64,000 bases of DNA, taken from NCBI RefSeq assembly GCF_001617365.1, contig NZ_LVJR01000027.1:62001-126000 (forward strand). Direction: 5' to 3'. The notes below the pieces were generated by a model that saw nothing but the letters and a program-made list of their open reading frames with translations, was not told the origin of the DNA and searched no databases. Made by a program: the position numbers and the translations under genes. Numbering within the stretch: position 1 is the stretch's first letter; each line of letters opens with the position of its first letter. Origin of the DNA: Rhodanobacter sp. FW104-R8. GTDB taxonomy: Bacteria > Pseudomonadota > Gammaproteobacteria > Xanthomonadales > Rhodanobacteraceae. Shown piece after piece: positions 7,672-26,935 of the stretch.

Positions 7672-9018
<1,347 letters not shown>

Positions 9019-9163
9019 CTTTCTTCTGCACATGCGGTCATGGATGCCGCTCTGACCTGAAAGGTTGCCATGACTTGCGGACTATTCAAACCCGGAAGCA
9101 CCGGCGCCTCGCATGATTGCCGATTTCCGTGGGAGCGGCTGACGATTCGACCAGCCTGACGAC

Positions 9164-11002
9164 TTACCCCGCCACCGGGTGCGCCGGTGCCCTGCCCGCC
9201 TTCACCGCGGCGATCCATGCGTCGGTGCGCGCTTCCAGCACGTCCAGCGGCAGCGCGCCGCCGTCGAGGATCTCGTCATGGAACGCACGGATATCGAACC
9301 GGCTGCCCAGCTCCCGCTTCGCGCGCGTGCGCAGTTCGAGAATTTTCAGCTCGCCCATTTTGTAGGCCAGCGCCTGGCCCGGCCAGGTGACGTAGCGATC
9401 GGTCTCGGCCTGCACGTCCGGTTCGTCCTCGCTGGAATGCGCGTGGAAGAAATCCACCATCTGCTGGCGCGTCCAGTGTTTGTAATGCACCCCGGTGTCG
9501 AGCACCAGACGATCGGCGCGCAACAACTCGTCGGACAGGCGGCCGTAGTCGGACAGCGGGTCCTGGTAGAAGCCGATGTCCTTGCCCAACTGCTCCGAAT
9601 ACAGCGCCCAGCCCTCGATATAGGCGGTGTAGCCGGCCTGCTGGCGGAACGGCGGCAGCGCCGGCAGGGTCTGCGCAATCGAGATCTGCAGGTGATGCCC
9701 CGGCACGCCTTCGTGATAGGCGGTCGACTCGATCGACAGCACGCTGCGATTCGCGAAATCGCCGGTGTTGACGAAAATCTGCCCCGGCCGCGAGCCGTCC
9801 GGCGTGCCCTGGTGGTATTCGGCCGTCGGCGCTTCCTTCTCGCGGAACGCCTCCACCGGCACCACCACCACCTTGGTCTTCGGCAGCAGGCCGAACAGCT
9901 TGGGCAGCTCCGGCTGCATCTGCGCCAGATAGCCGCGGTAGCGTTTGAGGATGTCCTCGCGCGAGGTCGCGTGCGTCTTCGGGTTGGTCTTCAGCGAGGC
10001 ACGGAAGCTGGCCAGGTCGGCGAAGCCCTGCGACTTGGCGATCTTCGTCATCTCGCCCTCGATACGCTTGACCTCGGCCAGGCCAAGTTCGTGGATCTTC
10101 TCCGGCGACTCCTTGGTGGTGGTCATCTGCTCCACGTCGTAGCGATAGATCGCGTCGCCGTTCGGCAAATCCCAGATACCCGGCTGGCTGCGCCCGTGCG
10201 GCGCGTAATCCTTGGCCACGAATTCGCCCAGCTTGCGATAGGCCGGACGCACGTCCTGGTCGATCGCCGCAAGGATCGCGTCATGCAGGCGCTTCTGGTC
10301 GGCCGCCGACACCGATGCCGGGAAATGCTTCAGCGGTTCGGCGAACACGCTGTCCATGCCGGCCGGCTTCTCGATGCTGGCGATCTGCGTGACGACTTTC
10401 TCCAGCAGGTATCTCGGCGGCATCATCTTGTCGCGCATGCCCTGCCGCGCCACATCGATCACCTGATCGAAGCCTTTCGGCACCGCCTTCAGGCGCGCGA
10501 GATAATCCTCGTATTCCTTCGTGTTGTTGAACGGGATCGAGCTGACGAAACCTGCCAGCTCCAGGTGGATACCGCTCATCTGCTCCAGCGGCATCTCGTG
10601 CAGCTTCAGGTCGTAGGCTTTCAGCCTGTCCTTCAGGCGGCGCACCATCAGCTGCTGGTTGAGCCTGTCGGTATCGGAGAACCCGCTCGTATCGATCGCC
10701 TCGAAGCGCTTCAGGAAATCCGCGGTCGCCTTGTTCTCGGCCGCCGCATGCGCCAGCGAGAGGTCGCTCCAGCGGTCGTTGTAACGCAGGTCGCCGAGGA
10801 TCGTCGCGAACTCCGGACTGTTCTGCAGCATGTGCTGCCACTGCTCGGCCAACAGCGCGTTGAGCGCCTTCACCCGGGTCGCCACGCCCGCCTGCGCAAC
10901 CTGCGCCGCCGGTGCGGCCTGGGCAGGTGAGGCCACGGTTGATGAAATCACGGTCACCGAGCCCAACAGGCTCGCACAGACAAGCAGCGGCAAGGTCTTC
11001 AT
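9164..11002 (-). CDS. DUF885 metallopeptidase, exported
   Basis: A 612-residue protein with a signal peptide (MKTLPLLVCASLLGS then an ASPAQA cleavage site), so periplasmic. The DUF885 signature HEGVPGHH is near residue 428 and gives a zinc-binding HExxxGHH-like motif; a distal Glu is expected further on. DUF885 proteins are poorly characterised zinc peptidases related to the M3/M32 group. The ATG has GGAG about ten bases upstream. It lies between the permease array and the two-component genes, all on one strand. The context suggests it degrades a peptide handled or sensed by the exporter, but that is inference. Confidence 0.85.
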   Translation of the reverse strand: MKTLPLLVCASLLGSVTVISSTVASPAQAAPAAQVAQAGVATRVKALNALLAEQWQHMLQNSPEFATILGDLRYNDRWSDLSLAHAAAENKATADFLKRFEAIDTSGFSDTDRLNQQLMVRRLKDRLKAYDLKLHEMPLEQMSGIHLELAGFVSSIPFNNTKEYEDYLARLKAVPKGFDQVIDVARQGMRDKMMPPRYLLEKVVTQIASIEKPAGMDSVFAEPLKHFPASVSAADQKRLHDAILAAIDQDVRPAYRKLGEFVAKDYAPHGRSQPGIWDLPNGDAIYRYDVEQMTTTKESPEKIHELGLAEVKRIEGEMTKIAKSQGFADLASFRASLKTNPKTHATSREDILKRYRGYLAQMQPELPKLFGLLPKTKVVVVPVEAFREKEAPTAEYHQGTPDGSRPGQIFVNTGDFANRSVLSIESTAYHEGVPGHHLQISIAQTLPALPPFRQQAGYTAYIEGWALYSEQLGKDIGFYQDPLSDYGRLSDELLRADRLVLDTGVHYKHWTRQQMVDFFHAHSSEDEPDVQAETDRYVTWPGQALAYKMGELKILELRTRAKRELGSRFDIRAFHDEILDGGALPLDVLEARTDAWIAAVKAGRAPAHPVAG

Positions 11003-11091
11003 CAGGCTAGTTCTCCGGGGTGTACATGGGCTCACGAACATGCATTGTGACTGGCATGAAACTCGATTTCAGGTACTGGACAGCACAATTC

Positions 11092-12306
11092 TCACGCCGA
11101 CCGCGTCGCCACTACCGGCGGTACTGCTGCCGCGCGCAGCGCCGGGCCGAGCACCGCGAGCTGGCCCAGCGCCCACAGCGCCAGCGCGCCGATCGGCAGG
11201 TAGTACAACGGCAGGCGCGGCAATTCGTAATGCGTCATCAGCACCAGGTTCAGCGCGTAGGCCAGCACCATGCCCAGCGCGATGCCGAAGCTGACGATCA
11301 GGAAGTTTTCGGTCTGGAAGTAATGCAGGATGTCGGCGCGAGTGGCGCCGATCGCGCGACGGATGCCGATCTGCCGACGGCGCTGCTGCACCCAGAAACT
11401 GGCGAGGCCGACGATGCCGAGCGCGGTGACGCCGAGCAACGCCACGATCACGCCCACCAACACGCCGGCCATCGCGCGGTCGGTCTGAAAGTACGTGCTG
11501 CGCAGATCGCCCAGGGTCTGGCTGTTCTCGTGGTCGAGCACCACGTCCGGGGCGATCTTCGCGACCACCGCCTTCGCGTCGTGCAGCACGCGCGGCAGGT
11601 CCTTCGGATCGGCACGCAACAGGTACGTGCCGGAAAGGAACCTGCCTGGCTGCGCCGGTGCAAACACCGACCACTCCGCTGCACTCGCGCCACGACTCGC
11701 AGGACGGGCTCGCGCCAGATGCTCGACCACGCCGATCACGCGGAAGTGGAGCTTGTCGCACCAGAACTCCTTGCCCAGCGGGTCGGCGCCAGGCCATAGG
11801 TGTTCGGCCAACGAGCGGGTAATCAGCACGCGCGCATCCGTCGGGAAGTCGCCTTGCAGCGCCTGGTAATCGTCGGCCCGCGGCCATTGCCCGGCCACCA
11901 GCTGCAGGCCAAGCGCCTGCGTGCTGCCGGGGCCGCCGTTGTATATGTCCACCACGGCGCCATAGTGCTGGCCGGCCGCATCCGTGGTGATGCCCACTGT
12001 ACCGGCCTGCTGGCCGAACGGCACCGTGTTGATCACGCTGACCGATTGCATGCCATGGATCGCACGCAGGCCGGCAAGCATGCGTGCGTTGACATCGATA
12101 TCCGCGCTGCTGTCGTAACCGGTGAGGTAAATCACGGCCAGCGAGGATTCGTTCACGCCGCTGTGGATCTTCATCATGCCGAGCCGGTTGGCGATCAAGA
12201 AACAGGCGTTGCACAGCACCGCGCAAGCCAGCGCGATCTCCAGCGCAATCAGCAAGGTGGCGAGGCGATGTTTGCGCAACGCGGAAAGGATGGGGCGTAT
12301 CTGCAT
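11092..12306 (-). CDS. FtsX-type ABC permease, B subunit of pair 4
   Basis: A 404-residue MacB-like permease without its own ATPase domain. One membrane helix near 17-38 is followed by a periplasmic MacB-type core (about 45-275), then the FtsX domain with three helices near 279-305, 335-355 and 370-392. The conserved cytoplasmic loop QQRRRQIGIRRAIGATRADI contacts the ATPase. Start chosen from GAGG nine bases upstream and from paralogues beginning with an ILxALRxxK pattern. It lies 11 bases after its A partner and closes the array. Closest in sequence to the B subunit of pair 3 (both carry an LEIAL-AVLCNA/AIVCNA helix). Confidence 0.88.
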   Translation of the reverse strand: MQIRPILSALRKHRLATLLIALEIALACAVLCNACFLIANRLGMMKIHSGVNESSLAVIYLTGYDSSADIDVNARMLAGLRAIHGMQSVSVINTVPFGQQAGTVGITTDAAGQHYGAVVDIYNGGPGSTQALGLQLVAGQWPRADDYQALQGDFPTDARVLITRSLAEHLWPGADPLGKEFWCDKLHFRVIGVVEHLARARPASRGASAAEWSVFAPAQPGRFLSGTYLLRADPKDLPRVLHDAKAVVAKIAPDVVLDHENSQTLGDLRSTYFQTDRAMAGVLVGVIVALLGVTALGIVGLASFWVQQRRRQIGIRRAIGATRADILHYFQTENFLIVSFGIALGMVLAYALNLVLMTHYELPRLPLYYLPIGALALWALGQLAVLGPALRAAAVPPVVATRSA

Positions 12307-12317
12307 GACCGGCATCC

Positions 12318-13643
12318 TCACAACGTCTTCAGTTGCAGCGCAGGCGCGATGCGGCTCGCGCGCAGGGCGGGCAGCGCGCCGGCAAGCAGGCTCACCGCGA
12401 TCGCCAGCGCGAAGGTGATCAGGAACATCGGGGCGTCCAGATGCACCAGGTCCGCGTACGCCGCGGGTTGTCTCCGCACCAGCCACAGGCCAGCCAGCGT
12501 CAGCAGCCAACCACCGATGCCGCCTAGCAAGCCGATCAGCCCCGCCTCGACCAGACATTGCGCGAACACCGTCGCACGGCTGGCGCCGAGCGCGCGGCGC
12601 ACGCCGATCTCGCCACCCCGGCGCAGGAACTTCGCCAGCAGCAGACCCACCGTGTTGAACAGGCAGATCGCAAGGAAGGCGAATGCCAGCCAGGTCTGCA
12701 GGCGCACGTCGCCGGGTACCACGCCGTTGAAGTCCAGCCACTGCATCAGGCTGCGCAAGCGCGTGTTGTCGGCATGGATGAAGCGCCCCAGCGCCTTCTG
12801 CTGCGCGGCATAACCGGCCAGGAAATCACGGTAGCCGGCCACCTTCGCCGCACTGCCCAGTTCCACCCACAGACCGATCCAGACGCACGGCGCGTTTACC
12901 AGATGGCCGGGCTTGTCGGGGATGTGCCAGCAGTTGAACTGATGAAAGTTGCCGTCGTTGATTTCGAGGCCGCTGGTGAACGGCACGAACACGTCCTCCG
13001 GCTTGGCGTAATAGTCCGCGGTGTTGCCGTGCGAGAAACGGCCACCGGCCACCGTGTAGAACTGCGGCGATGGCCGCCACGGTTTCAGCACGCCGACGAT
13101 GCGCACATCGGTGTCCTTGAGGCGCAGTGTGCGGCCCACGCTGTTGGCACCGCCGAACAACTTGTCGTTGAGGTTGGCCGAGATCACCGCCACGCGCGCG
13201 TGCTTCGCGTCGTCGTCCGCGCTCCAGCCGTTGCCGTACCGAAACGGGACCTCGAACATCGGGAAGAAATCCGCCGTAGTCGATAGCATCATCTCCATCA
13301 GAGGTGGCAGATCCACGCCAGGTGCATGCACTTTCAACTGGCTGTCCACGATCAGCGCCTGCCGGTCTGCGCGATGCGCACCCCACAGATCCATCGCTGA
13401 CTGGTAGTCCAGCATGTCCTGCGGTTCGGTGTGGCTGTAGCTAGTGTCTGGGACAGCATCCACTTGCGCGTAGAACAACTTGCCGCTCTTGTCCGGCAGT
13501 GGATCGCCGGAAAGCAGATGCATCACCGTCAGCGTGGTCATGCTGGCGCCGATGCCGACGGCGATGGCGATCACCATCAGCACGGTGAGTATCTTGTTGC
13601 GCTTCAGGCTGCGCAGCGCGAGGTCGAGGAAGTAGGCGAACAT
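12318..13643 (-). CDS. FtsX-type ABC permease, A subunit of pair 4
   Basis: A 441-residue permease of the A type, which begins MFAYFLDLALRSLKRNK. Helix 1 is at 18-40, a long periplasmic core carries [20 protein letters not shown] and [15 protein letters not shown], and three helices near 318-338, 366-388 and 404-426 complete the FtsX domain around the [11 protein letters not shown] loop. It ends ALQLKTL, as the other A subunits do (xLQLKxx). It precedes its B partner by 11 bases and is separated from pair 3 by a GGGATTC-family inverted repeat. A dimer with the B subunit served by the single ATPase of the operon is inferred. Confidence 0.88.
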   Translation of the reverse strand: MFAYFLDLALRSLKRNKILTVLMVIAIAVGIGASMTTLTVMHLLSGDPLPDKSGKLFYAQVDAVPDTSYSHTEPQDMLDYQSAMDLWGAHRADRQALIVDSQLKVHAPGVDLPPLMEMMLSTTADFFPMFEVPFRYGNGWSADDDAKHARVAVISANLNDKLFGGANSVGRTLRLKDTDVRIVGVLKPWRPSPQFYTVAGGRFSHGNTADYYAKPEDVFVPFTSGLEINDGNFHQFNCWHIPDKPGHLVNAPCVWIGLWVELGSAAKVAGYRDFLAGYAAQQKALGRFIHADNTRLRSLMQWLDFNGVVPGDVRLQTWLAFAFLAICLFNTVGLLLAKFLRRGGEIGVRRALGASRATVFAQCLVEAGLIGLLGGIGGWLLTLAGLWLVRRQPAAYADLVHLDAPMFLITFALAIAVSLLAGALPALRASRIAPALQLKTL

Positions 13644-13659
13644 GTCTGCTCCTTCGGAG

Positions 13660-13738
13660 CGGGATTGGGGATTCGAAGTTCGGGGGAGGAGTCGGCGTCA
13701 CGCTGCATTTCCGAATCCCCAATCCCCAACCCCGGCTT
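13660..13738. repeat. GGGATTC-family inverted repeat between pairs 3 and 4
   Basis: GGGATTGGGGATTCGAAGTT faces CCGAATCCCCAATCCCC about 50 bases later. It occupies the whole gap between two permease genes of the operon. Confidence 0.7.
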
Positions 13739-13740
13739 CA

Positions 13741-14979
13741 TCACACCGACCTTGTCGCCACCACTGGCGGCACCGCCGCCGCGCGCAGCGCCGGGCCGAG
13801 CACGGCGACTTGGCCGATCAGCCACAGCGCCACCGCACCCACCGGGAAATAGATGCCCGGCAGCCGCGGCAGCTCGTAGTGGGCCATCAGGAAAAGGTTG
13901 ATGCCGTAGGCCAGCACCATGCCCAGCGCAATGCCGATCGTGGCAAGCAGAAAGTTCTCTGTCTGGAAGTAATGCAGGATGTTGGCGCGAGTGGCGCCAA
14001 GCGCACGGCGAACACCGATCGTGCGGCGCCGCTGCGCCACCCAGAAGCTGGCCAGGCCCACGATGCCCAGCGCGGTGACGGTCAGCAGCGCCACGATCAC
14101 GCCGACCAGCATGCCGGCCATCGCGCGGTCGTCCTGGAAGAACTTCCGGCGTACTTCGTCGAAACTGCGCTGGGTGGTCACCACGCGCTGCGGGTCGGCC
14201 TTCTTCAGGGCGGCCAGCGCAGCGGCCATGGCGCTCGCGCGATCTTCCGGCCGGGTGCGGATCAGGTAGCTCTGGTCCTTGTTCGTGCCCATGCGTATCG
14301 GCACCACCATGGTGTATTGCGCCTTGGCCACGTCGTACGCATTCGGCCGCACCAAACTGTCCAGCACGCCGACCACGCGCAGGCCAACCACCGGCGTGAG
14401 GTAGATGGCGCGACCCAGCGGGTTCTGTCCCGGCCACAGCCGCTCGGCCAGGGTCCGGGTGATCAGCGTCACGTGCGGCAGGCTCTTGCTGTCGCCCGTG
14501 CCGAGCGCCTTCAACGCCGTCTCCACATCGACGAAGTCATCCGGCTGCAGGTCGCGCCCGGACACCAGCCGCGTGCCCAGCGTCGGCACCAGGTTCTCGC
14601 CGAAATAGGTGGTGGCGAAGAGCGTGCGCTCGGGCTGCGCCGGGTCGAGCCGGATGTTGCCGTTCGACGACGAGTGGCCGAACGGCACCTGGTTGGAGGA
14701 AGCCACCGAAAGCACGCCGGGCACCTGCCTGAGCACCGCCACATCCTCCGCGAGGCGGGCATACGGATTGGACAGAGTCGTCACATCGGCCACCTGGATC
14801 TGCAGCAGCTCGTGCTCGGCCACGCCGCTGGGTATGTCCATGCGCTGCAGGCGCTGGCCGATCAGGAATACCGCGTTGCAGACGATGGCGCAGGTCAGCG
14901 CGATCTCCAGGATCAGCAGCCAGGACGTGAGCTTGTGCCGGCGCAGCGTGGAAAGGATCGGAAGAATGTCCATGCTCAC
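13741..14979 (-). CDS. FtsX-type ABC permease, B subunit of pair 3
   Basis: A 412-residue B-type permease, starting MSMDILPILSTLRRHKL. One N-terminal helix (LLILEIALTCAIVCNAVFLI), a periplasmic MacB-like core of about 230 residues with RTLAERLWPGQNPLGRAIY, and a three-helix FtsX domain with [20 protein letters not shown]. Its C-terminus PVVATRSV is nearly that of the pair 4 B subunit. It starts one base after the stop of its A partner, so the two are translationally coupled. Substrate unknown. By family, MacB-like permeases without ATPase domains move peptides or lipophilic compounds, or act as mechanotransmitters driving an adaptor. Confidence 0.88.
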   Translation of the reverse strand: MSMDILPILSTLRRHKLTSWLLILEIALTCAIVCNAVFLIGQRLQRMDIPSGVAEHELLQIQVADVTTLSNPYARLAEDVAVLRQVPGVLSVASSNQVPFGHSSSNGNIRLDPAQPERTLFATTYFGENLVPTLGTRLVSGRDLQPDDFVDVETALKALGTGDSKSLPHVTLITRTLAERLWPGQNPLGRAIYLTPVVGLRVVGVLDSLVRPNAYDVAKAQYTMVVPIRMGTNKDQSYLIRTRPEDRASAMAAALAALKKADPQRVVTTQRSFDEVRRKFFQDDRAMAGMLVGVIVALLTVTALGIVGLASFWVAQRRRTIGVRRALGATRANILHYFQTENFLLATIGIALGMVLAYGINLFLMAHYELPRLPGIYFPVGAVALWLIGQVAVLGPALRAAAVPPVVATRSV

Positions 14980-14980
14980 C

Positions 14981-16288
14981 TCAGTTGCTCTTCAGTTGCA
15001 GGGCGGGCGCGATTTGGCAGGCGCGCCAGGCCGGCAGCAGGCCGGCCAGCAGCGTGGCGCATACCGCCAGGACGAAGGTGGCGAGCAGCATGCTCGGATC
15101 CAGGTGTGCCAGCGCGGCGTAATCCGAAGGCCGCTGTCGCACCAGCCACAGCCCGAACATCGCCAGCAGCAGGCCGCCGATGCCGCCGACCAGGCCGATC
15201 ACGCCGGATTCGATCAGCAACTGCGCGAACAACGCGCGCCGCGACGCGCCCAGCGCACGGCGCACGCCCAGCTCGGCCGAGCGGCGCATGAACTTGGCCA
15301 GCATCAGACCCACCGTGTTGACCAGGCATACCAGCAGGAAGCCGAACGCCAACCCGGTTTGCAGGCGCACGTCATTGGGCACCACCCTCTGGTAGTCGAG
15401 CCACTGCACCACGTTGCGCAGGCGCACGTTGGGAGCGCGCTGGAACCGGCCCAGCGCTTTCTGCTCCTGCGAGTAGTGCACGAGAAACTCCTCGTACGCG
15501 GCTGCTTTCACGGGGCTGTCCAGTTGCACCCAGAACTGCAGCCACACGCAGGTATCCGAAGGCAGGATGTTGCCGACGCCACCGCCACCGTTGCCCCAGC
15601 AATCGCTGGAGCCGTTGCGATCCAGCCGCAACTCCAACATGGTCTGCAGCGGCAGGAACACCTGCTCGCCATAGGCGTAGGAGCCCGTGTTCAGATCATA
15701 GAAATGCGGGTTCGGCTGCCAGCTGTCCAGCACGCCCACGATGCGGAAGGACGTGCCGGCCATGCGCAGTGTGCGGCCCACGCTGTCGGCTCCGCCGAAC
15801 AGCTTGTCGTTGAGCGACTTCGCGATCACCACCTCGCGCGCCTTGGCCTCGCCGTCCGCCGCGGTCCAGCCGTGGCCGTACAGGAACGGTGCGTCGAACA
15901 TCGCGAAGAAATCCGCGCTGGTGTAGCGCGCCTCGACGTAGAACGGATCGAGCGAGGATCGTTCCGGCTGGAGCGGCACCGAGCCGCCGCTCATCAGCGC
16001 CTGGTGGTCGGCGCGACCGGCACGCAGCAGGTTCAGGCCGTCGATCAGGGTGACCTGATCCGGCGGCTCCTTGTTCGGTTGCATGCCCTTGATGTCCTGC
16101 GGATCGACCTGCGGGTAGTACAGCTGCGCGCTCTTGCCGGGCAGCGGGTCGCCGGACAGCACGTGCAGTACCGTGAGCGTGGTCATGCTGGCGCCGATGC
16201 CCAGCGCGATCGCCAGCACCATCAGCGCGGTGAGCGCCTTGTTGCGCTTGAGGCTGCGCAGGGCCAGGTCGAGGTAGTAGGTGAACAT
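14981..16288 (-). CDS. FtsX-type ABC permease, A subunit of pair 3
   Basis: A 435-residue A-type permease that begins MFTYYLDLALRSLKRNKAL. The core region has FFAMFDAPFLYGHGWTAADGE and NDKLFGGADSVGRTL; the FtsX domain carries [16 protein letters not shown] and ends ALQLKSN. The frame stays open upstream through the GGGATTC repeat, which would add about 31 residues (IPNPESRIPSP), but the start at MFTYYL matches all paralogues and follows an AAGGAGA site, so the extension is rejected. The gene is one base from its B partner. It groups with the pair 4 A subunit (GIGASMTTLTV) rather than with pairs 1 and 2. Confidence 0.88.
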   Translation of the reverse strand: MFTYYLDLALRSLKRNKALTALMVLAIALGIGASMTTLTVLHVLSGDPLPGKSAQLYYPQVDPQDIKGMQPNKEPPDQVTLIDGLNLLRAGRADHQALMSGGSVPLQPERSSLDPFYVEARYTSADFFAMFDAPFLYGHGWTAADGEAKAREVVIAKSLNDKLFGGADSVGRTLRMAGTSFRIVGVLDSWQPNPHFYDLNTGSYAYGEQVFLPLQTMLELRLDRNGSSDCWGNGGGGVGNILPSDTCVWLQFWVQLDSPVKAAAYEEFLVHYSQEQKALGRFQRAPNVRLRNVVQWLDYQRVVPNDVRLQTGLAFGFLLVCLVNTVGLMLAKFMRRSAELGVRRALGASRRALFAQLLIESGVIGLVGGIGGLLLAMFGLWLVRQRPSDYAALAHLDPSMLLATFVLAVCATLLAGLLPAWRACQIAPALQLKSN

Positions 16289-16301
16289 CAAGGTCTCCTT
16301 T

Positions 16302-16403
16302 GGAGACGGGATTCGGGATTCGGGATTCGGAATTTGGAAGAGCGGCGACACGGCAAGTCTTGGCTTTGCCGAATCCCCCATCCCGAATCCCGATTCCCGG
16401 CTT
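16302..16403. repeat. GGGATTC-family inverted repeat between pairs 2 and 3
   Basis: Tandem GGGATTC units facing away from the A gene (positions 16308-16330) and the inverted GAATCCC-type units at 16370-16399. It fills the gap between two permease genes. Confidence 0.75.
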
Positions 16404-16406
16404 TCA

Positions 16407-17660
16407 TCACGCCGCCCGCGTCGCCACCACCGGCGGCACGTTCGACGCGCGCCGCGCCGGCACGAACACCGCGGCCTGCCCGATCGCCAGCATCGCCAGC
16501 ACGCCGGTCAGCACGTACAGCACCGGGAGGCGCGTCATCTCGTAATGCATCATCAGCCACGCGTTGAGGCCCACCGCCAGCAGCACGCCGAGCACGACAC
16601 CCATCCCGGCGATCAGCAGGTTCTCGATCTGGAAGTAGTGCAGGATGTCGATCCGGCGCGCGCCCAGGGCGCGCCGCACGCCGATCTGCCGATGGCGCTG
16701 GCCGACCCAGAAGCTGGTGAGGCCGACGATGCCGGCGGCGGTGACGCAGAGCAGGATCAGGCAGACCACGCCCATCAGGATCGCCATGCCGACGTCGGCC
16801 CGGTAGGCGCTGGCGCGGATATCGGCGAACGACTTGACGCTGTCGTCGTCGAGCACGCGCATCGGGTTCACCGCATACAGCGTCGCCGGCACGGCGCGCA
16901 TCGCGGCATCGCGCCGGCCCGGCTTGGCCCGCACCACATAGCGCGCGAAGTTCGCGTCCAGCCGGGTCGGCACCAGGGTCGAGTGCCACGCGAAGCCGTT
17001 GCCCCAGCTGCCGGTGCTTGGCGTCTGCAGGCGCGCGACCACGCCGATGACGGTGCTCGGCGCGCTGCTGCCATCGGCATAGACCACCTTGCCCACCGCG
17101 CCGCGTTGCGGGAACAGCTTGTCGGCCAGTGCCTGGGTCACGATCACGATCGGACGGTCACGCTGGTCGCGTGCTCCCTGGTGCTGCACGTCGCCGGCCG
17201 TGAAGGCGCGGCCGGCCACCAGGCGCAGGCCCAGCGTGGCCAGGGCATGCTCGTCGGTGAAGTAGTACGCCGTGCGCGTGATGCCTTTCTCGAACTTCTG
17301 GTTGGGCTTGAGCGACAGCGCGCCGGTCCACGAGGAATTGAGCAGGGGCACCGAGTTGCTCGGCGCCACCGAGGCCACGTCGGGCAGGTTGCGCAGTGCC
17401 GCCAGGTCCTCCTGCTGCATCACGTCGAGCTTTTCCACGCCGGACGGGTCGTCGCCGCTGGGTGCGCCCACCCATTGCTGGGACACCAGGAACAGGTCGT
17501 TCTCGTCGAGGCCGGTGGGCCGGTTCACCCGTTCGACGCGCTGGCCGATGATGAATACCGCGTTGCAGACGATCGCCAGGGTCAGCGCGATCTGCAGCGA
17601 GATCAGCACGACGCCGGCCTTGTGTTTGCGCAGCGCCGCGAGAATGGGTGGGAGTGTCAT
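16407..17660 (-). CDS. FtsX-type ABC permease, B subunit of pair 2
   Basis: A 417-residue B-type permease starting MTLPPILAALRKHKAG. Helix 1 is [20 protein letters not shown]. The periplasmic core is followed by a three-helix FtsX domain with the loop [20 protein letters not shown], and the C-terminus is VVATRAA. The [14 protein letters not shown] helix links it to the pair 1 B subunit. Unlike the other pairs, this B gene is separated from its A gene by 169 bases that contain a GTAGGAGC-type inverted repeat. Its translation may therefore be uncoupled from A. Role as in the other pairs. Confidence 0.88.
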   Translation of the reverse strand: MTLPPILAALRKHKAGVVLISLQIALTLAIVCNAVFIIGQRVERVNRPTGLDENDLFLVSQQWVGAPSGDDPSGVEKLDVMQQEDLAALRNLPDVASVAPSNSVPLLNSSWTGALSLKPNQKFEKGITRTAYYFTDEHALATLGLRLVAGRAFTAGDVQHQGARDQRDRPIVIVTQALADKLFPQRGAVGKVVYADGSSAPSTVIGVVARLQTPSTGSWGNGFAWHSTLVPTRLDANFARYVVRAKPGRRDAAMRAVPATLYAVNPMRVLDDDSVKSFADIRASAYRADVGMAILMGVVCLILLCVTAAGIVGLTSFWVGQRHRQIGVRRALGARRIDILHYFQIENLLIAGMGVVLGVLLAVGLNAWLMMHYEMTRLPVLYVLTGVLAMLAIGQAAVFVPARRASNVPPVVATRAA

Positions 17661-17703
17661 GGTTGTCGTTCCTTGCGCGAGACAGACGGGCCGCCGCCGA
17701 TAC

Positions 17704-17805
17704 CGTAGGAGCCCGCTTGCGGGCGATGCTCCTGCTTGTGCAAACCCCGGATCCTGAATTCTGAAACCCGGCTCAAAAGCATCGCCCGCGAGCGGGCTCC
17801 TACGG
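17704..17805. repeat. GTAGGAGC-type inverted repeat inside permease pair 2
   Basis: CGTAGGAGCCCGCTTGCGGG at the left and CCCGCGAGCGGGCTCCTACG at the right, each a hairpin on its own and inverted to one another around a 47-base spacer. It resembles the REP-type palindromes of pseudomonads and xanthomonads. Confidence 0.8.
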
Positions 17806-17829
17806 CTGGGCGGAGTCGTGGGGCAGTCA

Positions 17830-19146
17830 TCAGTTCGATTTCAGTTGCCACGCGGGCTGCACGCGCGAGGCACGGAAGGTGGGATACAGCCCGGCCAGCG
17901 CGGTGGCGACGACGGCTACCAGCAGGGTGAGCACGAGCAGCGAGAAGTCGACCCGCGCCAGCGCGGCGATGTCCTTGGGCAAGACCCAGCCCACGCTGGC
18001 CACGCCGACGCCGGTCAGCAGCAGGCCTAGCACGCCGCCGCTCAGGCCGATCATGCCGGCCTCGACGAGGAACTGCGCATAGATCGCCCGGCGCGGCGCG
18101 CCCAGCGCGCGGCGCACGCCGATCTCGCCGCTGCGACGCAGGAACTTCGCCAGCAGCAGGCCGGCCGTGTTGACCAGGCAGGCCAGCAGCAGGCCCAGCG
18201 CCACCAGCAGCGACACCTTGGTGTCGCTGGGCACCACGTGCTGGTTGTCCAGCCATGCCGGCAGGTCGCGCAGGCGGTTGTTCGGCGCCCAGCCGAAGCG
18301 GCCGGATTGCTGCTGGTCGCGCGCGTAGCCGTCGAGGTACTGCCGGTAGGCCGTCACCGCGGCCGCATCGTCCAGTTGGGCCATGTAGGCGATCCACACG
18401 CAGGCGGAATGCTGCAGGCCGACGAAGCCCGACTCGGTGGGAACGGCGTTGCAATTGGTGTTGCCGTCGTTCGGCATGCCGACGGCGATGGCGCGCTGGA
18501 ACGGCACGAACACATCCTCGACGCCGGTGGAGAATCCACCGCTGTTGACCACGTCGAAGAAACGCGGCTGCGGATTCCAGTCGTTCAGCACGCCGACCAC
18601 GCGGTAGTCCTTGCCCTCGATGTTGACGGTCCTGCCCACGCTGTTGTCGCCGCCGAACAGCTTCTGGTTGAGCTTGCTGCTGATCACCGCCACCGCGGCG
18701 CGCTGCGCATCGTCGTCGGCGCTCCAGCCGCTGCCGTACAGGAACGGCACGTCGAGCATCGGGAAGAACTCGCCGTACACCGCGTGGCCGCTGACGTTGA
18801 TCGGATGCTTGCCCGCATCCGCCGGCACGATCGACGGGGAGATCTGGTACATCGCCGACTGCAGCCTGGCGCGGTGATCGCGCATCAGGGTGACCGCGTC
18901 GGTGTAGTCCATCGCGTTCGGCGGCTCGCCGTCGCTGCTGCGCCCGTTCGGCCCCCAGTTGTCGATCTGCGGCACGAACAGCTTCGACGACTTCCACGGG
19001 ATCGGATCGCCCGACACCGCGCGGAACACCGACCAGGTGGTCATCGACGCGGCCACGCCGAAGCCGATCGTCAGCACCATCAGCGCGGTCAGGCCGGGAC
19101 TTCGCTTGAGGCTGCGCAGGGCCAGTTCGAGGTAGTAGCTGAACAT
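17830..19146 (-). CDS. FtsX-type ABC permease, A subunit of pair 2
   Basis: A 438-residue A-type permease, starting MFSYYLELALRSLKRSPG. N-terminal helix at about 18-40, periplasmic core with FFPMLDVPFLYGSGWSADDD and NQKLFGGDNSVGRTV, three-helix FtsX domain with [16 protein letters not shown]-terminus [28 protein letters not shown] ties it to the pair 1 A subunit. A 12-residue in-frame extension exists upstream, but the MFSYYL start matches its paralogues. Repeat elements lie on both sides, so this gene could have been copied or exchanged as a unit. Confidence 0.88.
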   Translation of the reverse strand: MFSYYLELALRSLKRSPGLTALMVLTIGFGVAASMTTWSVFRAVSGDPIPWKSSKLFVPQIDNWGPNGRSSDGEPPNAMDYTDAVTLMRDHRARLQSAMYQISPSIVPADAGKHPINVSGHAVYGEFFPMLDVPFLYGSGWSADDDAQRAAVAVISSKLNQKLFGGDNSVGRTVNIEGKDYRVVGVLNDWNPQPRFFDVVNSGGFSTGVEDVFVPFQRAIAVGMPNDGNTNCNAVPTESGFVGLQHSACVWIAYMAQLDDAAAVTAYRQYLDGYARDQQQSGRFGWAPNNRLRDLPAWLDNQHVVPSDTKVSLLVALGLLLACLVNTAGLLLAKFLRRSGEIGVRRALGAPRRAIYAQFLVEAGMIGLSGGVLGLLLTGVGVASVGWVLPKDIAALARVDFSLLVLTLLVAVVATALAGLYPTFRASRVQPAWQLKSN

Positions 19147-19167
19147 TCCAAATGCTCCAGGTTTTGT

Positions 19168-19274
19168 CTCCTCCCCCTGCAAAGCAGGGGGAGGTCGGGA
19201 GGGGGTAAAGCTTTTGACGTCAAGATCAAAAGCACCCCTCCCCAGCCCTCCCCTGCTTTGCAGGGGAGGGAGAA
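19168..19274. repeat. GGGGAGGG-type composite inverted repeat between pairs 1 and 2
   Basis: The left hairpin CCTCCCCCTGC/GCAGGGGGAGG and right hairpin CCCTCCCCTGC/GCAGGGGAGGG are inverted to one another, with a central AAGCTTTTGA...CAAAAGC stretch. Other copies lie near 22701, 41043 and 43420. Confidence 0.85.
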
Positions 19275-19281
19275 AAGAACG

Positions 19282-20523
19282 TCACACCGACCGCGTCGCC
19301 TCCACCGGCGACACGCGCGAGGCACGCAGCGCCGGCGCCAGCACCGCGCCCTGGCCGAGCAGCAGCAGCACGGCCACGCCGATGCCCACGTAGGCCATCG
19401 ACATGTGGCTCATCTCGAAACGGGTCACCGTCCACAGGTTGAAGGCGATCGCCAGCACGGTGCCCAGCACCACGCCCACCGCACTGATCAGGAAGTTCTC
19501 GGTGAGGAAGTAGGCGAGGATGTCGCGCTGCCGGGCGCCCAGCGCGCGGCGCACGCCGATCTGCTTGCGGCGCTGGCCGACCCAGAAGCTGGTGAGGCCC
19601 ACGATGCCGGCCGCGGTGATCGCCAGCAGCACCACGCTGATGATGCCCATCAGGATCGCCATGCCGCGGTCGCGGTCGTACACCTTGTGACGGATGGTGG
19701 CGTAGTCCTGGATGCCGTCCTTCGGGTCGATGATGCGCAGGCGGCTTTGCGCGTACAGGGCCTTGGGCGCCTCGCGCATCGCGTCGGCAAGCTGACCGGG
19801 CCTGGCGCGCACGATGTAGTAGATGCCGCGCGAATCATCCGCCCGCATCGGCCAGATCAGCGCCTGCCCGGCATAGCTGTTGCTCCATTGATCCACGCCT
19901 TGCCGGTGCAGCGGATCGACGATGCCGACGATGGTGCTCGGCGTGGCGCCCATCGCGTAGAAGCTCTTGCCCAGCGCGTTGCCATCGGGGAACAAACGGT
20001 CGGCCAGCGCCTTGCTCACGATCGCCGTCGGCGGGGTGATTGCCTGCTGGGTGCCCATCACCATCACCTCATCGGGGCGGAAATTGCGCCCCGCGACGAG
20101 CTTCAGGCCCAGCGTGCCGATGAAATGTTCGTCGCCGGTGTACACCGCCGCATCGGTGGTCGGCCTGGTCTGCTCGGGCGTCATGGTGACGAAGTTGTCC
20201 CAGCCGCCGCCCCTCAGCGGATAACCGCTGGCAGGCGTGGCGTCGGACACGGCAGGCAGCTGCCGCAGCGCGAGCAGGTCGGCGCGCACCTGCGCATCGA
20301 CCTGCGCCGTCGATTGGCCGACGTCGGCCCACATATTGGCGATGACGAACACGTTGGCCTCGTCCACGCCGCTGGCAGCGGACAGGTTGGCCAGTCGCTG
20401 GTGGATGATGAACAACGCGTTGCACACGATGGCCAAGGTCAACGCGATTTGCAGCGCGATCAGCAGGGTGCCGGCCTTGTACCGGCGCAGCGCGGTGAGG
20501 ATGGGCCTGATCTGGATATTCAT
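19282..20523 (-). CDS. FtsX-type ABC permease, B subunit of pair 1
   Basis: A 413-residue B-type permease starting [18 protein letters not shown]. It has the SSLQ-type first helix ([20 protein letters not shown]), a periplasmic core, and an FtsX domain with [20 protein letters not shown]. The C-terminus VEATRSV differs by one residue from the VVATRS pattern of its paralogues. It begins 10 bases after the stop of its A partner. This is the first B gene transcribed in the array. Repeat elements follow it, so downstream pairs are separated from pair 1 on the message. Confidence 0.88.
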
Positions 20524-20533
20524 GGCGCTCTCC

Positions 20534-21844
20534 TCAGCTCGACTTCAACTGCCAGGCGGGCTGCACGTGTGCCGCGCGCCACGCCGGGTAGAACGCCGCC
20601 AGCACGGTGGCGATGATCGCAACGACAAAAGTCAGGCCCACCAGCGAGAAATCGAGCTGCGCCAGCTTGGCGATCTCCGGCTGGAACAGGATGCCCACGC
20701 CGGACACGCCCAGCGCAGTGAGCAGCAGGCCCAGCAGGCCGCCCGCGAGACCCACCGTGCCGGCCTCGACCAGGTATTGCTTGTAGATCTCGCCCCGCGT
20801 TGCGCCCAGGGCGCGGCGCACGCCGATCTCGCCGGCGCGGCGCATGAATTTCGCCAGCAGCAGGCCGATGGTGTTGACCAGGCAGATCAGGAAAAAGCCC
20901 AGCGCCACCGCCAGCGAGATGCGGCTTTCCGGCGGCACCACGTGCTCGTAATCGAGCCACTGCATCACGTCGCGCAGGCGCACGTTGGCTGCCCAGTTGA
21001 AGCGGCCCGCGCGCTGCTGGTCAGCGGCGTAGTTGGCGAGGAAGCTGCTGTAGCTGGCGACTTCGGCGGGGCTGCCCAGTTCCACCCATGGCGTGACCCA
21101 GACGCAGTTGCTTTGCAGATAGCCTTGCCAGCTCGTGTAGGCGAGCGAACCGCGGCAACTGTTGCGACCGCCCGTGCGCATCTGCAGATCCAGCGCACGG
21201 TTGAACACCATGTAGATATCCGGCTCGTCGGCAAAGCCGCTGGTACTGAACAGGTCGTAGAAACGTGGACGCGGGTTCCAGTGGCTGGCGACGCCCACAA
21301 CGCGGTAATCATGACCGCCAAGGCTGAGCGCACGCCCCACGCTGTTGGCGCCACCGAACAGCTTCTGGTTGAGCTCGCTGCTGATGACCACATCGCTGGC
21401 TCGCGCATCATCGTCCCGCGTACTCCAGCCGCTGCCGTAGCGGAACGGCACCTCGAACATGGTGAAGAAATCGGCGGTGACGGCGTAGCCGTTGGCATTC
21501 AAGGGGAGATCGCGATTGCCGCCCGGCATCACCGACAGCTGCACCGGATACAACAGCGTCTGGTGCTTCGCCGCGTGCGCACGCATCAGTGCCATCGCGT
21601 CGGTGTAAGCCAGCGCTTCCGCCGGCTCGCCCTTCAGGTTCTGCTGCGGCCCCCAGCTGTCGACCTGCGGCGTGAACAGCTGGGCGGACTTGCCCGGAAT
21701 GGGATTGCCCGACACGGCGCGGAACACCGAGTACGTGATCATCGACGCGGCCACGCCAAAGCCGATCGCCATCACCATCAGCGCGGTGAGAGCCGGATTG
21801 CGGCGCAAGCTGAGCAGACCAAGTTGGAAGTAGTAGGCGAGCAT
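20534..21844 (-). CDS. FtsX-type ABC permease, A subunit of pair 1
   Basis: A 436-residue A-type permease, starting [19 protein letters not shown]. It has the shared core motifs [20 protein letters not shown] and [15 protein letters not shown], an FtsX domain with [15 protein letters not shown], and ends AWQLKSS. It is the first permease gene after the ATPase gene and is separated from it by a GGGATTC-type repeat. The N-terminal MLAYY and LSLRR differ slightly from the MFxYY and RSLKR of the other three A subunits, so it is the most divergent A copy at this end. Confidence 0.88.
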
Positions 21845-21850
21845 CTCAAG

Positions 21851-21941
21851 TTCCGGGATTCGGGAGGACGGGATAGGAGATCAGGGAAAGCGGCGGGTCC
21901 GCGGGCCGCGGCTCTTGCGAGTCCCCAATCCCGAATCCCTG
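21851..21941. repeat. GGGATTC-family inverted repeat between ATPase and permease genes
   Basis: CCGGGATTCGGGA near 21853 faces CCCAATCCCGAATCCCT near 21924. Both arms are degenerate compared with the copy near 16302. Confidence 0.6.
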
Positions 21942-21945
21942 CCGC

Positions 21946-22668
<723 letters not shown>

Positions 22669-22700
22669 GGTTGTTCCTCGGTGGTGGTGATGGTCTTTGC

Positions 22701-22831
22701 TCCTCCCCCTGCATGTCCCAAAGGGACTTCCTTCGGTCGCAGGGGGAGGCTGGGAGGGGGTGATGCTTTTGACTTTGCAAGCAAGAGCTTTACCCCTCCC
22801 CAGCCCTCCCCTGCGCGCAGGGGAGGGAGAA
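22701..22831. repeat. GGGGAGGG-type composite inverted repeat with insertion
   Basis: The same element as at 19168, but the loop of its left hairpin is enlarged by about 25 bases that contain a small palindrome of their own (GTCCCAAAGGGAC). It fills the gap between the adaptor and ATPase genes. Confidence 0.8.
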
Positions 22832-22835
22832 ATCG

Positions 22836-24107
22836 TCAGTTGCTGATCGCGACAGTCGCCGCGCCCTTGAAGCTGTCGGTGCCGGAGATCACGATGCGGT
22901 CGCCTGCCTTCAGGCCGTCGAGGATTTCCACCTTGTCGATGCTGGAGGCGCCGACGCGGATCGGGGTTTTCTTGGCGAGGCCGTCGCGCACCAGGTAGGC
23001 GTAGCTTCCGCCGGATTCGTCGACGAACGAGCCGCGCTGCACGGTCAGCACGTCGTCGCGCTTGTCCAGCAGCACGCGCACCGACAGGCGCTGGTTCTGC
23101 CGCAGCTGCTTCGGCGTGTCGCCTTCGAAGCGCAGCCGCGCGGCGACCTGGCCGTTGACCACTTCCGGCGAGATCGCGCTGACCAGGCCCTTCCAGGTGT
23201 GGCCGTTGCCGCTGATCTCGCCGGCCATGCCGATGCCGAGGTCGCGCGCGAAGCTTTCCGGCACCTGCATCTCCACCTGCAGCGCGGACAGGTCGATCAC
23301 GCTGAGCAGCTGCGCGTCCTTGGCCACGGTGGCGCGTTCGGCGATGAACAGCTGGCCGACCTGGCCGTCGACCGGCGATTTCACGTTGAGGTCGTCGACC
23401 TGGCGCTGCAGGTCCTTCACCAGCAGCAGCTGGCGCTCGTGCGCGAGCTTCTTCGACTGGATGTCGAAGCTGAGGCTGGTGTTGTCCATGCCCAGGTCGG
23501 CCTTGGCGTGCTGCAGGGCGATCTTCGCCTTCTGCAGCTCGTCCCTGGCGCGGTCCACCGCCATGCTGGGTACGGCGCCCTTGTCGAATGCCTTCTGGTT
23601 GCGCTCGAGGTCGCGTTCGGCGGCGGTCGCGTCGATCTGTGCGTTGTCGTAGGCCTTCTGCAGTTCGCCGCGCTTCTTGCGCGCGTCGATCTGCGCGCGC
23701 TGGTATTCCACTTCCATCGCGTCGGCGTTGCTCTGCTCCTGCGCCAGCTTGTTGGTCAGCTCGGGACTGACGATGGTGGCCAGCACCTGGTCCTTCTTCA
23801 CCGTGTCGCCGGCGTGCACCTTCAGCGTCACCGCGCCGCCGGAAGTGGCGTACAGGGTGGGGCTGACCGCGGCGACCACCTTGCCTTCGGCGGCGATGTC
23901 GCGCACGAACGGACCACGCTCCACGGTGGCGAACGCCAGCCGCGAACTGCTGACCGATTCGGAAGCGGAAAACAGCCGGCCGGCACGCGGCGCCAGCCAC
24001 GCCAGCAGGGCCAGCACGAGCACGCCGGCGCCGACCAGGATCAGCCGGCGCCTGGGATTGGATTTCACCTCGACCAAGCGGTCTTGTGCGGACGTGTCGC
24101 GGATCAT
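22836..24107 (-). CDS. HlyD/MacA-type periplasmic adaptor
   Basis: A 423-residue membrane fusion protein. One N-terminal anchor helix (about 21-40, LILVGAGVLVLALLAWL) is followed by the first half of a lipoyl/biotinyl-like domain (LKVHAGDTVKKDQVLATI). A long alpha-hairpin spans about 110-230, then the second lipoyl half (VKSPVDGQVGQLFI) and beta-barrel domains with the C-terminal GLKAGDRIVISG. It should link the ABC permeases to a TolC-type outer-membrane channel; none is encoded in this window. The ATG start follows AGGAA and lies about 35 bases after the predicted sigma-54 start site. First gene of the locus. Confidence 0.92.
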   Translation of the reverse strand: MIRDTSAQDRLVEVKSNPRRRLILVGAGVLVLALLAWLAPRAGRLFSASESVSSSRLAFATVERGPFVRDIAAEGKVVAAVSPTLYATSGGAVTLKVHAGDTVKKDQVLATIVSPELTNKLAQEQSNADAMEVEYQRAQIDARKKRGELQKAYDNAQIDATAAERDLERNQKAFDKGAVPSMAVDRARDELQKAKIALQHAKADLGMDNTSLSFDIQSKKLAHERQLLLVKDLQRQVDDLNVKSPVDGQVGQLFIAERATVAKDAQLLSVIDLSALQVEMQVPESFARDLGIGMAGEISGNGHTWKGLVSAISPEVVNGQVAARLRFEGDTPKQLRQNQRLSVRVLLDKRDDVLTVQRGSFVDESGGSYAYLVRDGLAKKTPIRVGASSIDKVEILDGLKAGDRIVISGTDSFKGAATVAISN

Positions 24108-24152: not shown

Positions 24153-24168
24153 TGCAATCCGCGTGCCA
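24153..24168 (-). promoter_or_regulatory. Sigma-54 promoter of the exporter operon
   Basis: On the minus strand the sequence reads TGGCACGCGGATTGCA, an exact match to the -24/-12 consensus (TGGCAC, five bases, TTGC). The implied start of transcription is near 24142, about 35 bases before the adaptor ATG. An NtrC-family activator is encoded at the far end of the same locus. Confidence 0.85.
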
Positions 24169-24228: not shown

Positions 24229-24250
24229 TGCAGTGTCCGCGGACACCGCA
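24229..24250. promoter_or_regulatory. Candidate activator site for the NtrC-type regulator
   Basis: GTGTCCGCGGACAC is a perfect 14-bp palindrome at 24233-24246, extended by TGC and GCA arms to 22 bp with one mismatched pair. Its centre is about 97 bases upstream of the predicted sigma-54 start, a normal distance for an enhancer of this regulator class. Binding by the local regulator is inferred. Confidence 0.55.
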
Positions 24251-26889: not shown

Positions 26890-26935
26890 ACACTCTCCCC
26901 TCGCATGTCCAGGACTAATCCATCGAATTCAGCCA

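What the first reader, a model, noticed from the sequence alone, without database searches (positions are those of the whole stretch)
11092..24107. ABC exporter with four tandem permease pairs for one ATPase and one adaptor
Eight FtsX-type permeases without ATPase domains are arranged strictly as A-B pairs (A begins MF/LxYY, B begins with an ILxALRxxK pattern) behind a single MacB-class ATPase gene and a single HlyD-type gene. The pairs fall into two subgroups: pairs 1 and 2 share GVAASM and [16 protein letters not shown], and pairs 3 and 4 share GIGASMTTLTV and LEIALTC/ACAV. This suggests one duplication, then another, with the periplasmic parts diverging. If all pairs use the same ATPase, the cell may assemble several exporters of different specificity from a common engine. 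I know of no characterised system with this stoichiometry.
Basis: partly seen in the sequence, partly recalled or inferred. Interest (0 to 1): 0.8.

Follow-up and report, generated by a model that had tools for sequence, protein, structure and literature searches.

The report
Exporter array with exchangeable permease pairs
A soil bacterium (Rhodanobacter) carries one export motor and one adaptor gene followed by four different pairs of membrane-pump genes, and close relatives carry one to about ten pairs in different assortments, which suggests that these bacteria swap pump modules around a common engine to handle different chemicals.

Summary
In detail: on the minus strand, one MacA-like adaptor, one ABC ATPase and eight ATPase-less MacB/FtsX permeases in strict A-B order (24107-11092). 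It is not unique. The same operon (sigma-54 promoter, adaptor, ATPase, [TolC], (A-B)n, [peptidase], NtrC-type regulator, histidine kinase) occurs across Rhodanobacteraceae with n from 1 to about 10 and exactly one ATPase and one adaptor in all 41 complete loci; sister families and Pseudoalteromonas have n=1. The proposed split of pairs 1,2 against 3,4 is real (support 1.0 in both A and B trees). But these are old paralogue classes, not recent in-place copies: no array holds two similar units. The unexpected result is that A-B units vary between close strains like exchangeable cassettes. Where adaptor, ATPase and regulators are about 95% identical, 61% of units have no counterpart at 85%, and A and B almost always switch together. 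Purifying selection acts on every copy; the ATPase-contact helix is nearly invariant while the periplasmic domains diverge. Best reading: a common ATPase and adaptor drive a strain-variable repertoire of A-B heterodimeric exporters, probably for diverse peptide-like toxic compounds. ATPase sharing and substrates are inferred, not shown.

The parts
24233..24246 (.). Perfect palindrome GTGTCCGCGGACAC, candidate binding site (UAS) of the array's NtrC-type regulator
   Evidence: only perfect copy in the 3.72-Mb genome; a related site in 77 of 115 homologous loci, typically 79 bp upstream of the sigma-54 promoter
24153..24168 (-). Sigma-54 promoter TGGCACGCGGATTGCA
   Evidence: match about 60 nt upstream of the adaptor start in 115 of 117 loci; 0/114 upstream of the ATPase, 0/45 RR, 0/42 HK, 3/475 A, 6/427 B
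22836..24107 (-). Periplasmic adaptor, MacA/HlyD type (423 aa)
   Evidence: RND_mfp 1.4e-36, DarC model 2.2e-24 but below cut-off; PDB MacA 3.6e-16
21946..22668 (-). ABC ATPase (240 aa), DarD/LolD/MacB class
   Evidence: DarD model 1.7e-76, below cut-off; catalytic motifs intact; one close homologue per genome as a rule
20534..21844 (-). Permease A1 (class I)
   Evidence: MacB_PCD + FtsX; ADOP 8-401; AlphaFold pLDDT 81.6, top PDB match MacB 5gko
19282..20523 (-). Permease B1 (class I)
   Evidence: FtsX + MacB_PCD; ADOP 411-801; AlphaFold pLDDT 89.3, top match MacB 5gko TM 0.66
17830..19146 (-). Permease A2 (class I)
   Evidence: with B2 the only unit type present in all nine close genomes
16407..17660 (-). 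Permease B2 (class I)
14981..16288 (-). Permease A3 (class II)
13741..14979 (-). Permease B3 (class II)
12318..13643 (-). Permease A4 (class II)
11092..12315 (-). Permease B4 (class II)
9164..11041 (-). DUF885 protein with N-terminal hydrophobic segment and an HExxPGHH motif (probable periplasmic metallopeptidase), passenger of the array
   Evidence: PF05960 2.2e-173; same place in about half of the complete Rhodanobacter arrays
7672..9033 (-). NtrC-family response regulator (receiver, sigma-54 AAA+, Fis HTH)
   Evidence: Pfam; closes the array in every locus whose 3' end was reached
6092..7477 (-). Histidine kinase, two TM segments with a loop of roughly 25-35 residues, HAMP
   Evidence: conserved next to the regulator

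Best explanation
The locus is a sigma-54-controlled MacAB-like (type VII) tripartite export operon whose permease is a heterodimer A-B. One ATPase homodimer and one adaptor oligomer (with a TolC from elsewhere in this genome) serve several alternative A-B heterodimers with different periplasmic domains, so the cell assembles several exporters of different specificity from a common engine. The A-B units form a strain-variable repertoire that is exchanged between related bacteria as whole cassettes. The likely role is clearing diverse toxic, probably peptide-like, compounds from the periplasm after induction through the linked kinase-regulator pair. Shown by sequence: gene order, single ATPase and adaptor, A-B co-inheritance, classes, promoter, selection, mosaic arrays. 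Inferred: physical ATPase sharing, heterodimer assembly, substrate class, inducer, recombination route.
For: One ATPase and one adaptor in 41/41 complete arrays with 1 to 9 intact pairs. In 200 genomes of the order, 129 of 130 genomes with A have the ATPase, and nearly all Rhodanobacteraceae have a single close ATPase while A copies reach 8 or more. A and B of a pair always fall in the same class (266/266) and their trees mirror each other (r 0.94; within-genome shuffles mean 0.04, max 0.12). Single-pair loci exist with class I alone (L188, L189) or class II alone (L070, L082, sister family), so either class appears sufficient with this engine. The coupling-helix core RRALGA is 98-100% conserved in A and, except for one position at 75%, 100% in B, while window-copy identity falls to 44% (A) and 29% (B) in the periplasmic domain. 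dN/dS 0.09-0.36 for all four units. Sigma-54 promoter and palindrome upstream of the adaptor. Fold and sequence match MacB/MacA. TolC gene within the operon of relatives. Cassette exchange: with a housekeeping control (ProRS against backbone r 0.91).
Against: No biochemical data. Other LolD/MacB-like ATPases exist in the genome at 34-46% identity and could in principle serve some pairs. Substrate class rests on weak context (DUF885, a proline-iminopeptidase-like hydrolase in relatives, similarity to darobactin-exporter models below their cut-offs). All pairs are probably co-transcribed, so there is no sign of pair-specific regulation. Only a few units are more similar between lineages than every backbone gene (7 of 1428), so exchange within the genus is inferred mostly from missing counterparts in close strains. 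The crossover position is not resolved.
Confidence: 0.66

Rival explanations
1. Dosage or redundancy: the pairs are near-equivalent copies that raise the amount of one exporter.
For: All pairs lie in one operon behind one promoter; copy number varies from 1 to about 10.
Against: Units in one array are never 80% identical or more in protein (0 of 63 arrays); no recent duplicates; each window unit keeps its own orthologues under purifying selection; periplasmic domains are the most diverged part.
Confidence: 0.08
2. The pairs assemble into one large mixed complex, so that A1-B1, A2-B2 and the rest are subunits of a single machine.
For: Co-expression; class I pairs usually lie upstream of class II pairs (57 of 63 arrays), which could mean a fixed role for each class.
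Against: Loci with a single pair of either class exist; copy number and composition vary freely between close strains.
Confidence: 0.08
3. The permeases act mainly as sensors or signal transmitters for the linked kinase (BceAB/BceS-like flux sensing) or in envelope maintenance, not as exporters.
For: The kinase has a short extracytoplasmic loop, as in intramembrane-sensing kinases (general knowledge); the fold family includes BceAB, FtsEX and LolCDE.
Against: A dedicated MacA-type adaptor in every complete locus and TolC in several argue for efflux; BceAB systems have no adaptor or TolC (general knowledge).
Confidence: 0.13
4. Array differences between strains come only from differential loss out of a large ancestral array, without exchange between strains (a rival to the cassette part only).
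For: Old paralogue classes; broken units occur (G001, G014, G019); few clear cross-lineage identities.
Against: Nine genomes with about 94% backbone identity hold 21 unit types while arrays hold 3-6 units and the largest array found has about 10. Some units are 96.5% identical between lineages whose ProRS is 86.9% identical and MFP, RR, HK 85-88%.
Confidence: 0.15

Closest known systems
MacAB-TolC (macrolide/toxin tripartite pump; Greene et al. 2018, PMC5985334)
   Same: MacB-fold 4-TM permease with periplasmic domain, MacA-like adaptor, TolC; mechanotransmission coupling expected
   Different: ATPase is a separate protein, permease is probably a heterodimer A-B, several alternative pairs per ATPase, sigma-54 two-component control
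LolCDE
   Same: Separate ATPase with two non-identical FtsX-type permeases per complex
   Different: One pair only, no adaptor/TolC, hands lipoproteins to LolA; permeases here score far below the LolC/LolE cut-offs
Darobactin exporter DarBCD (NCBIfam NF038007, NF038008, NF038010) and ADOP permeases (TIGR03434)
   Same: Best curated match of the ATPase (DarD) and one of the better ones of the adaptor (DarC); A aligns to the first half and B to the second half of the fused permease ADOP
   Different: All below the curated cut-offs; DarB and ADOP are single fused proteins; Dar belongs to a biosynthetic cluster; ADOP is described (general knowledge) as lacking linked ATPases
Pseudoalteromonas xiamenensis adaptor-ATPase-A-B-sigma54 RR-HK operon (NZ_CP099918)
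   Same: Same gene order and regulators
   Different: One pair only; its A is 35% identical to A1
Shared importer ATPases FhuC and MsmK (PMC10147376)
   Same: One ATPase is known to energise several permeases of different specificity
   Different: Importers with permeases at separate loci; no adaptor, no tandem exchangeable array, different permease fold

Membership tests
MacB-type (type VII) ABC permease | Four TM helices, periplasmic MacB core between TM1 and TM2, FtsX C-terminal domain | tested here: met
   Pfam, TM scan, AlphaFold models matching MacB 5gko at E about 1e-20
MacAB-TolC tripartite efflux pump | MacA-type adaptor linked to the transporter | tested here: met
   present once in each of 41 complete arrays
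MacAB-TolC tripartite efflux pump | ATPase domain fused to the permease, homodimeric | tested here: not met
   ATPase is a separate 240-aa protein; permeases have none
MacAB-TolC tripartite efflux pump | TolC-family outer-membrane partner | tested here: inconclusive
   none in the array, but a TolC gene lies between ATPase and A1 in relatives and about a dozen TolC-family genes occur elsewhere in this genome
MacAB-TolC tripartite efflux pump | Exports macrolides, toxins or peptides | not testable with these tools
   needs experiment
Darobactin exporter DarBCD | Scores above NCBIfam cut-offs for DarB, DarC, DarD | tested here: not met
   DarC 86 of 450 bits, DarD 256.5 of 375, DarB 22.6 of 700
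LolCDE | LolD, LolC, LolE equivalog cut-offs | tested here: not met
   LolD 215 of 308 bits; LolC/E about 20-35 of 360-540
ADOP | Single polypeptide with two permease halves, over cut-off | tested here: not met
   A and B are separate genes, 156-198 of 622 bits each
Sigma-54-dependent operon under an NtrC-family regulator | -24/-12 promoter plus upstream palindrome and linked regulator | tested here: met
   (by sequence only)

The most novel reading that the evidence does not exclude
A constant engine with a variable module repertoire: a vertically inherited ATPase, adaptor and two-component frame holds a hypervariable array of A-B permease cassettes that related bacteria exchange as whole units, each cassette giving a separate export specificity, comparable in logic to exchangeable specificity subunits in restriction systems or to bacteriocin-immunity repertoires.
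Probability: 0.55. Interest if true: 0.85.

Novelty: new variant of a known kind. Interest (0 to 1): 0.68.

Why it matters
Shared ATPases are known for importers, but I found no description of a type VII exporter in which one ATPase and one adaptor stand before up to about ten alternative heterodimeric permeases that vary between strains as cassettes. If the engine is shared, these arrays are a natural library of permease specificities, and swapping one A-B unit would show directly which part of a MacB-type transporter determines its substrate, an open question. The variability also points to an ecological arms race over toxic natural products in soil.

Tried and rejected
Recent tandem duplication: rejected, no near-identical copies in any array. 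Hidden extra ATPase in homologous loci: none. Membership in Dar, Lol or ADOP families: all below cut-offs. Wider regulon of the palindrome: only one perfect site in the genome; the single one-mismatch site (C113) was taken as chance after a brief look at its context. Sigma-54 sites upstream of orphan A-B pairs: one hit among the orphan genes examined. Sigma-54 sites in the sister family: the strict pattern misses several, not pursued with a looser one. Exact crossovers at unit ends: fourfold-site identity is only modestly raised at the 5' end of A (0.73) and the 3' part of B (0.76) against about 0.6-0.7 inside and 0.90 in the backbone, so protein constraint explains most of the conserved ends and recombination there is only suggested. 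Literature searches for permease arrays with one ATPase, ADOP, or Rhodanobacter/Xanthomonas MacB arrays gave no matching description in the held library. Plasmid search: only four distant relatives. Orphan pairs without ATPase were found in several genomes that also carry the main array; I did not survey whether this always holds.
Full report
Observation. The window lies in a 3.7-Mb genome of the genus Rhodanobacter (genomes of the same genus have contigs that match named Rhodanobacter records in length). On the minus strand, 24107-11092, stand one adaptor, one ATPase and eight permeases in strict A-B order. A proteins share 47-55% identity, B proteins 40-51%, A and B 24-32%; A1-A2, A3-A4, B1-B2, B3-B4 are the closest pairs. 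All eight have the FtsX domain and lack an ATPase domain. A matches the first half and B the second half of the fused ADOP permease model. Solved-structure and fold searches give MacB as closest and MacA for the adaptor.

Surroundings. Downstream are a DUF885 protein with a metallopeptidase-like motif, an NtrC-type response regulator and a histidine kinase. Upstream of the adaptor is a canonical sigma-54 promoter, found at about 60 nt in 115 of 117 homologous loci and almost never before the other genes, with a 14-bp perfect palindrome that is unique in this genome and has a counterpart in 77 of 115 loci, typically 79 bp upstream of the promoter. The array is therefore very probably one regulated operon.

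Relatives. I fetched 39 array regions from the genus and 80 named loci, nearly all Rhodanobacteraceae, and annotated them with profiles of the window's own genes. The order adaptor-ATPase-[TolC]-(A-B)n-[peptidase]-regulator-kinase is conserved in Rhodanobacter, Luteibacter and Pinirhizobacter where the whole locus was read; Dyella, Frateuria and Fulvimonas loci, cut 10 kb after the adaptor, show the same order as far as they go. In 41 complete loci n runs from 1 to 9 intact pairs, with one ATPase and one adaptor each time; one array cut at the adaptor end has 10 or more. Within a pair the genes are spaced by a median of 10 nt, between pairs by 88 nt. A sister family has single-pair loci in the genera sampled except one genus with 3-5 pairs; Pseudoalteromonas has the one-pair operon with the same regulators. 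Across 200 genomes of the order, 129 of the 130 genomes with A also have the ATPase orthologue, and Rhodanobacteraceae nearly always have one close copy whatever the number of pairs (overlap counted by hand from the two tables).

Trees. In trees of 278 A and 272 B the split of pairs 1,2 from pairs 3,4 has support 1.0 and a long branch (A 0.39, B 0.61). All 266 complete pairs have A and B in the same class, and the two trees mirror each other (r 0.94 against 0.04 after shuffling partners within genomes). Class I usually lies upstream of class II (57 of 63 arrays). Rooted with Pseudoalteromonas, the sister-family pairs fall in class II; class I was found only in Rhodanobacteraceae. Loci with only a class I pair (L188, L189) or only a class II pair (L070, L082) exist: natural evidence that either class is enough for this ATPase and adaptor. 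Each window unit has orthologues in 33-54 of 62 other arrays closer than any unit of its own array, and no array holds near-identical units.

Cassette behaviour. Within the orthologue groups, permease distances hardly follow the distances of adaptor, ATPase, regulator and kinase (r -0.06 to 0.44), while A and B follow each other (r 0.80-0.97). At DNA level the 5' frame (adaptor, ATPase) and 3' frame (regulator, kinase) agree (r 0.82) and the frame agrees with the neighbouring housekeeping gene ProRS (r 0.91). In 16 close genome pairs (frame 95.1% identical) 61% of 159 units have no counterpart at 85% or more, 38% do, and A and B disagree in only two cases. Sliding identity of G007 against G010 goes from 96% in adaptor and ATPase to 55-80% in most of unit 1, 95% in unit 2 and 55-80% in most of unit 3. 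Nine genomes with a frame about 94% identical hold 21 unit types in arrays of 3-6; only the window's pair 2 type is in all nine. A few units are far more alike than the genomes around them (96.5% between G004 and G007, whose ProRS is 86.9% and MFP, RR, HK 85-88% identical). Loss alone from a common ancestor would need an array about twice as long as any seen. Exchange of whole A-B units is the better explanation; the crossover route is not resolved.

Mechanism. The coupling helix that meets the ATPase in this fold family (general knowledge of MacB/LolCDE) is the most conserved stretch of A and, with the C-tail, of B; the periplasmic domain is the least conserved (window copies 44% in A, 29% in B). 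All four units are under purifying selection (dN/dS 0.09-0.36). The most economical reading is one ATPase dimer and one adaptor serving alternative A-B heterodimers. Direct proof of shared ATPase use is missing. The substrate class is a guess from context: DUF885 here, and in relatives a proline-iminopeptidase-like hydrolase or an MBL-fold gene between or after pairs, plus similarity to darobactin-exporter models below cut-off.

Comparison. It works like a split, heterodimeric MacAB-TolC pump; it does not pass the curated cut-offs for Dar, Lol or ADOP and lacks the fused ATPase of MacB. Shared ATPases are known for importers such as FhuC and MsmK (PMC10147376); the MacB review lists homodimer, heterodimer and fused forms (PMC5985334), and the passages I read describe no array of alternative permeases.

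Noticed in passing
L011 8628 to about 11230 (G000 C16): Orphan A-B pair in the same genome, next to kinase/response-regulator genes, with no ATPase or adaptor found in the 20-kb stretch fetched. Similar orphan pairs in L193 (two pairs), L194, L195, L196, and L192 with TolC.
   Followed up: partly
window spacers 22669-22835, 21845-21945, 19183-19281, 17661-17829, 16289-16406, 13644-13740: Spacers around the units carry GC-rich repeats of interspersed type (GGGGAGGG palindromes, GGATTCGGGATT, GTAGGAGCC), possibly helpful for recombination.
   Followed up: partly
window 24361-29011: TonB-dependent receptor and TPR-sulfotransferase upstream of the adaptor, kept next to it in about 20 loci only.
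   Followed up: partly
window 22836-24107: The adaptor has a higher dN/dS (0.28-0.38) than the ATPase (0.11-0.16) and most permease comparisons.
   Followed up: no
G027 array (L139/L140): An MBL-fold hydrolase gene sits between pair 1 and pair 2; other arrays carry a proline-iminopeptidase-like hydrolase, a CPBP protein or an ankyrin protein between or after pairs.
   Followed up: partly
L083: Contig labelled Candidatus Eremiobacteraeota carries a typical Rhodanobacteraceae array (adaptor 73% identical), probably a mis-binned contig.
   Followed up: no
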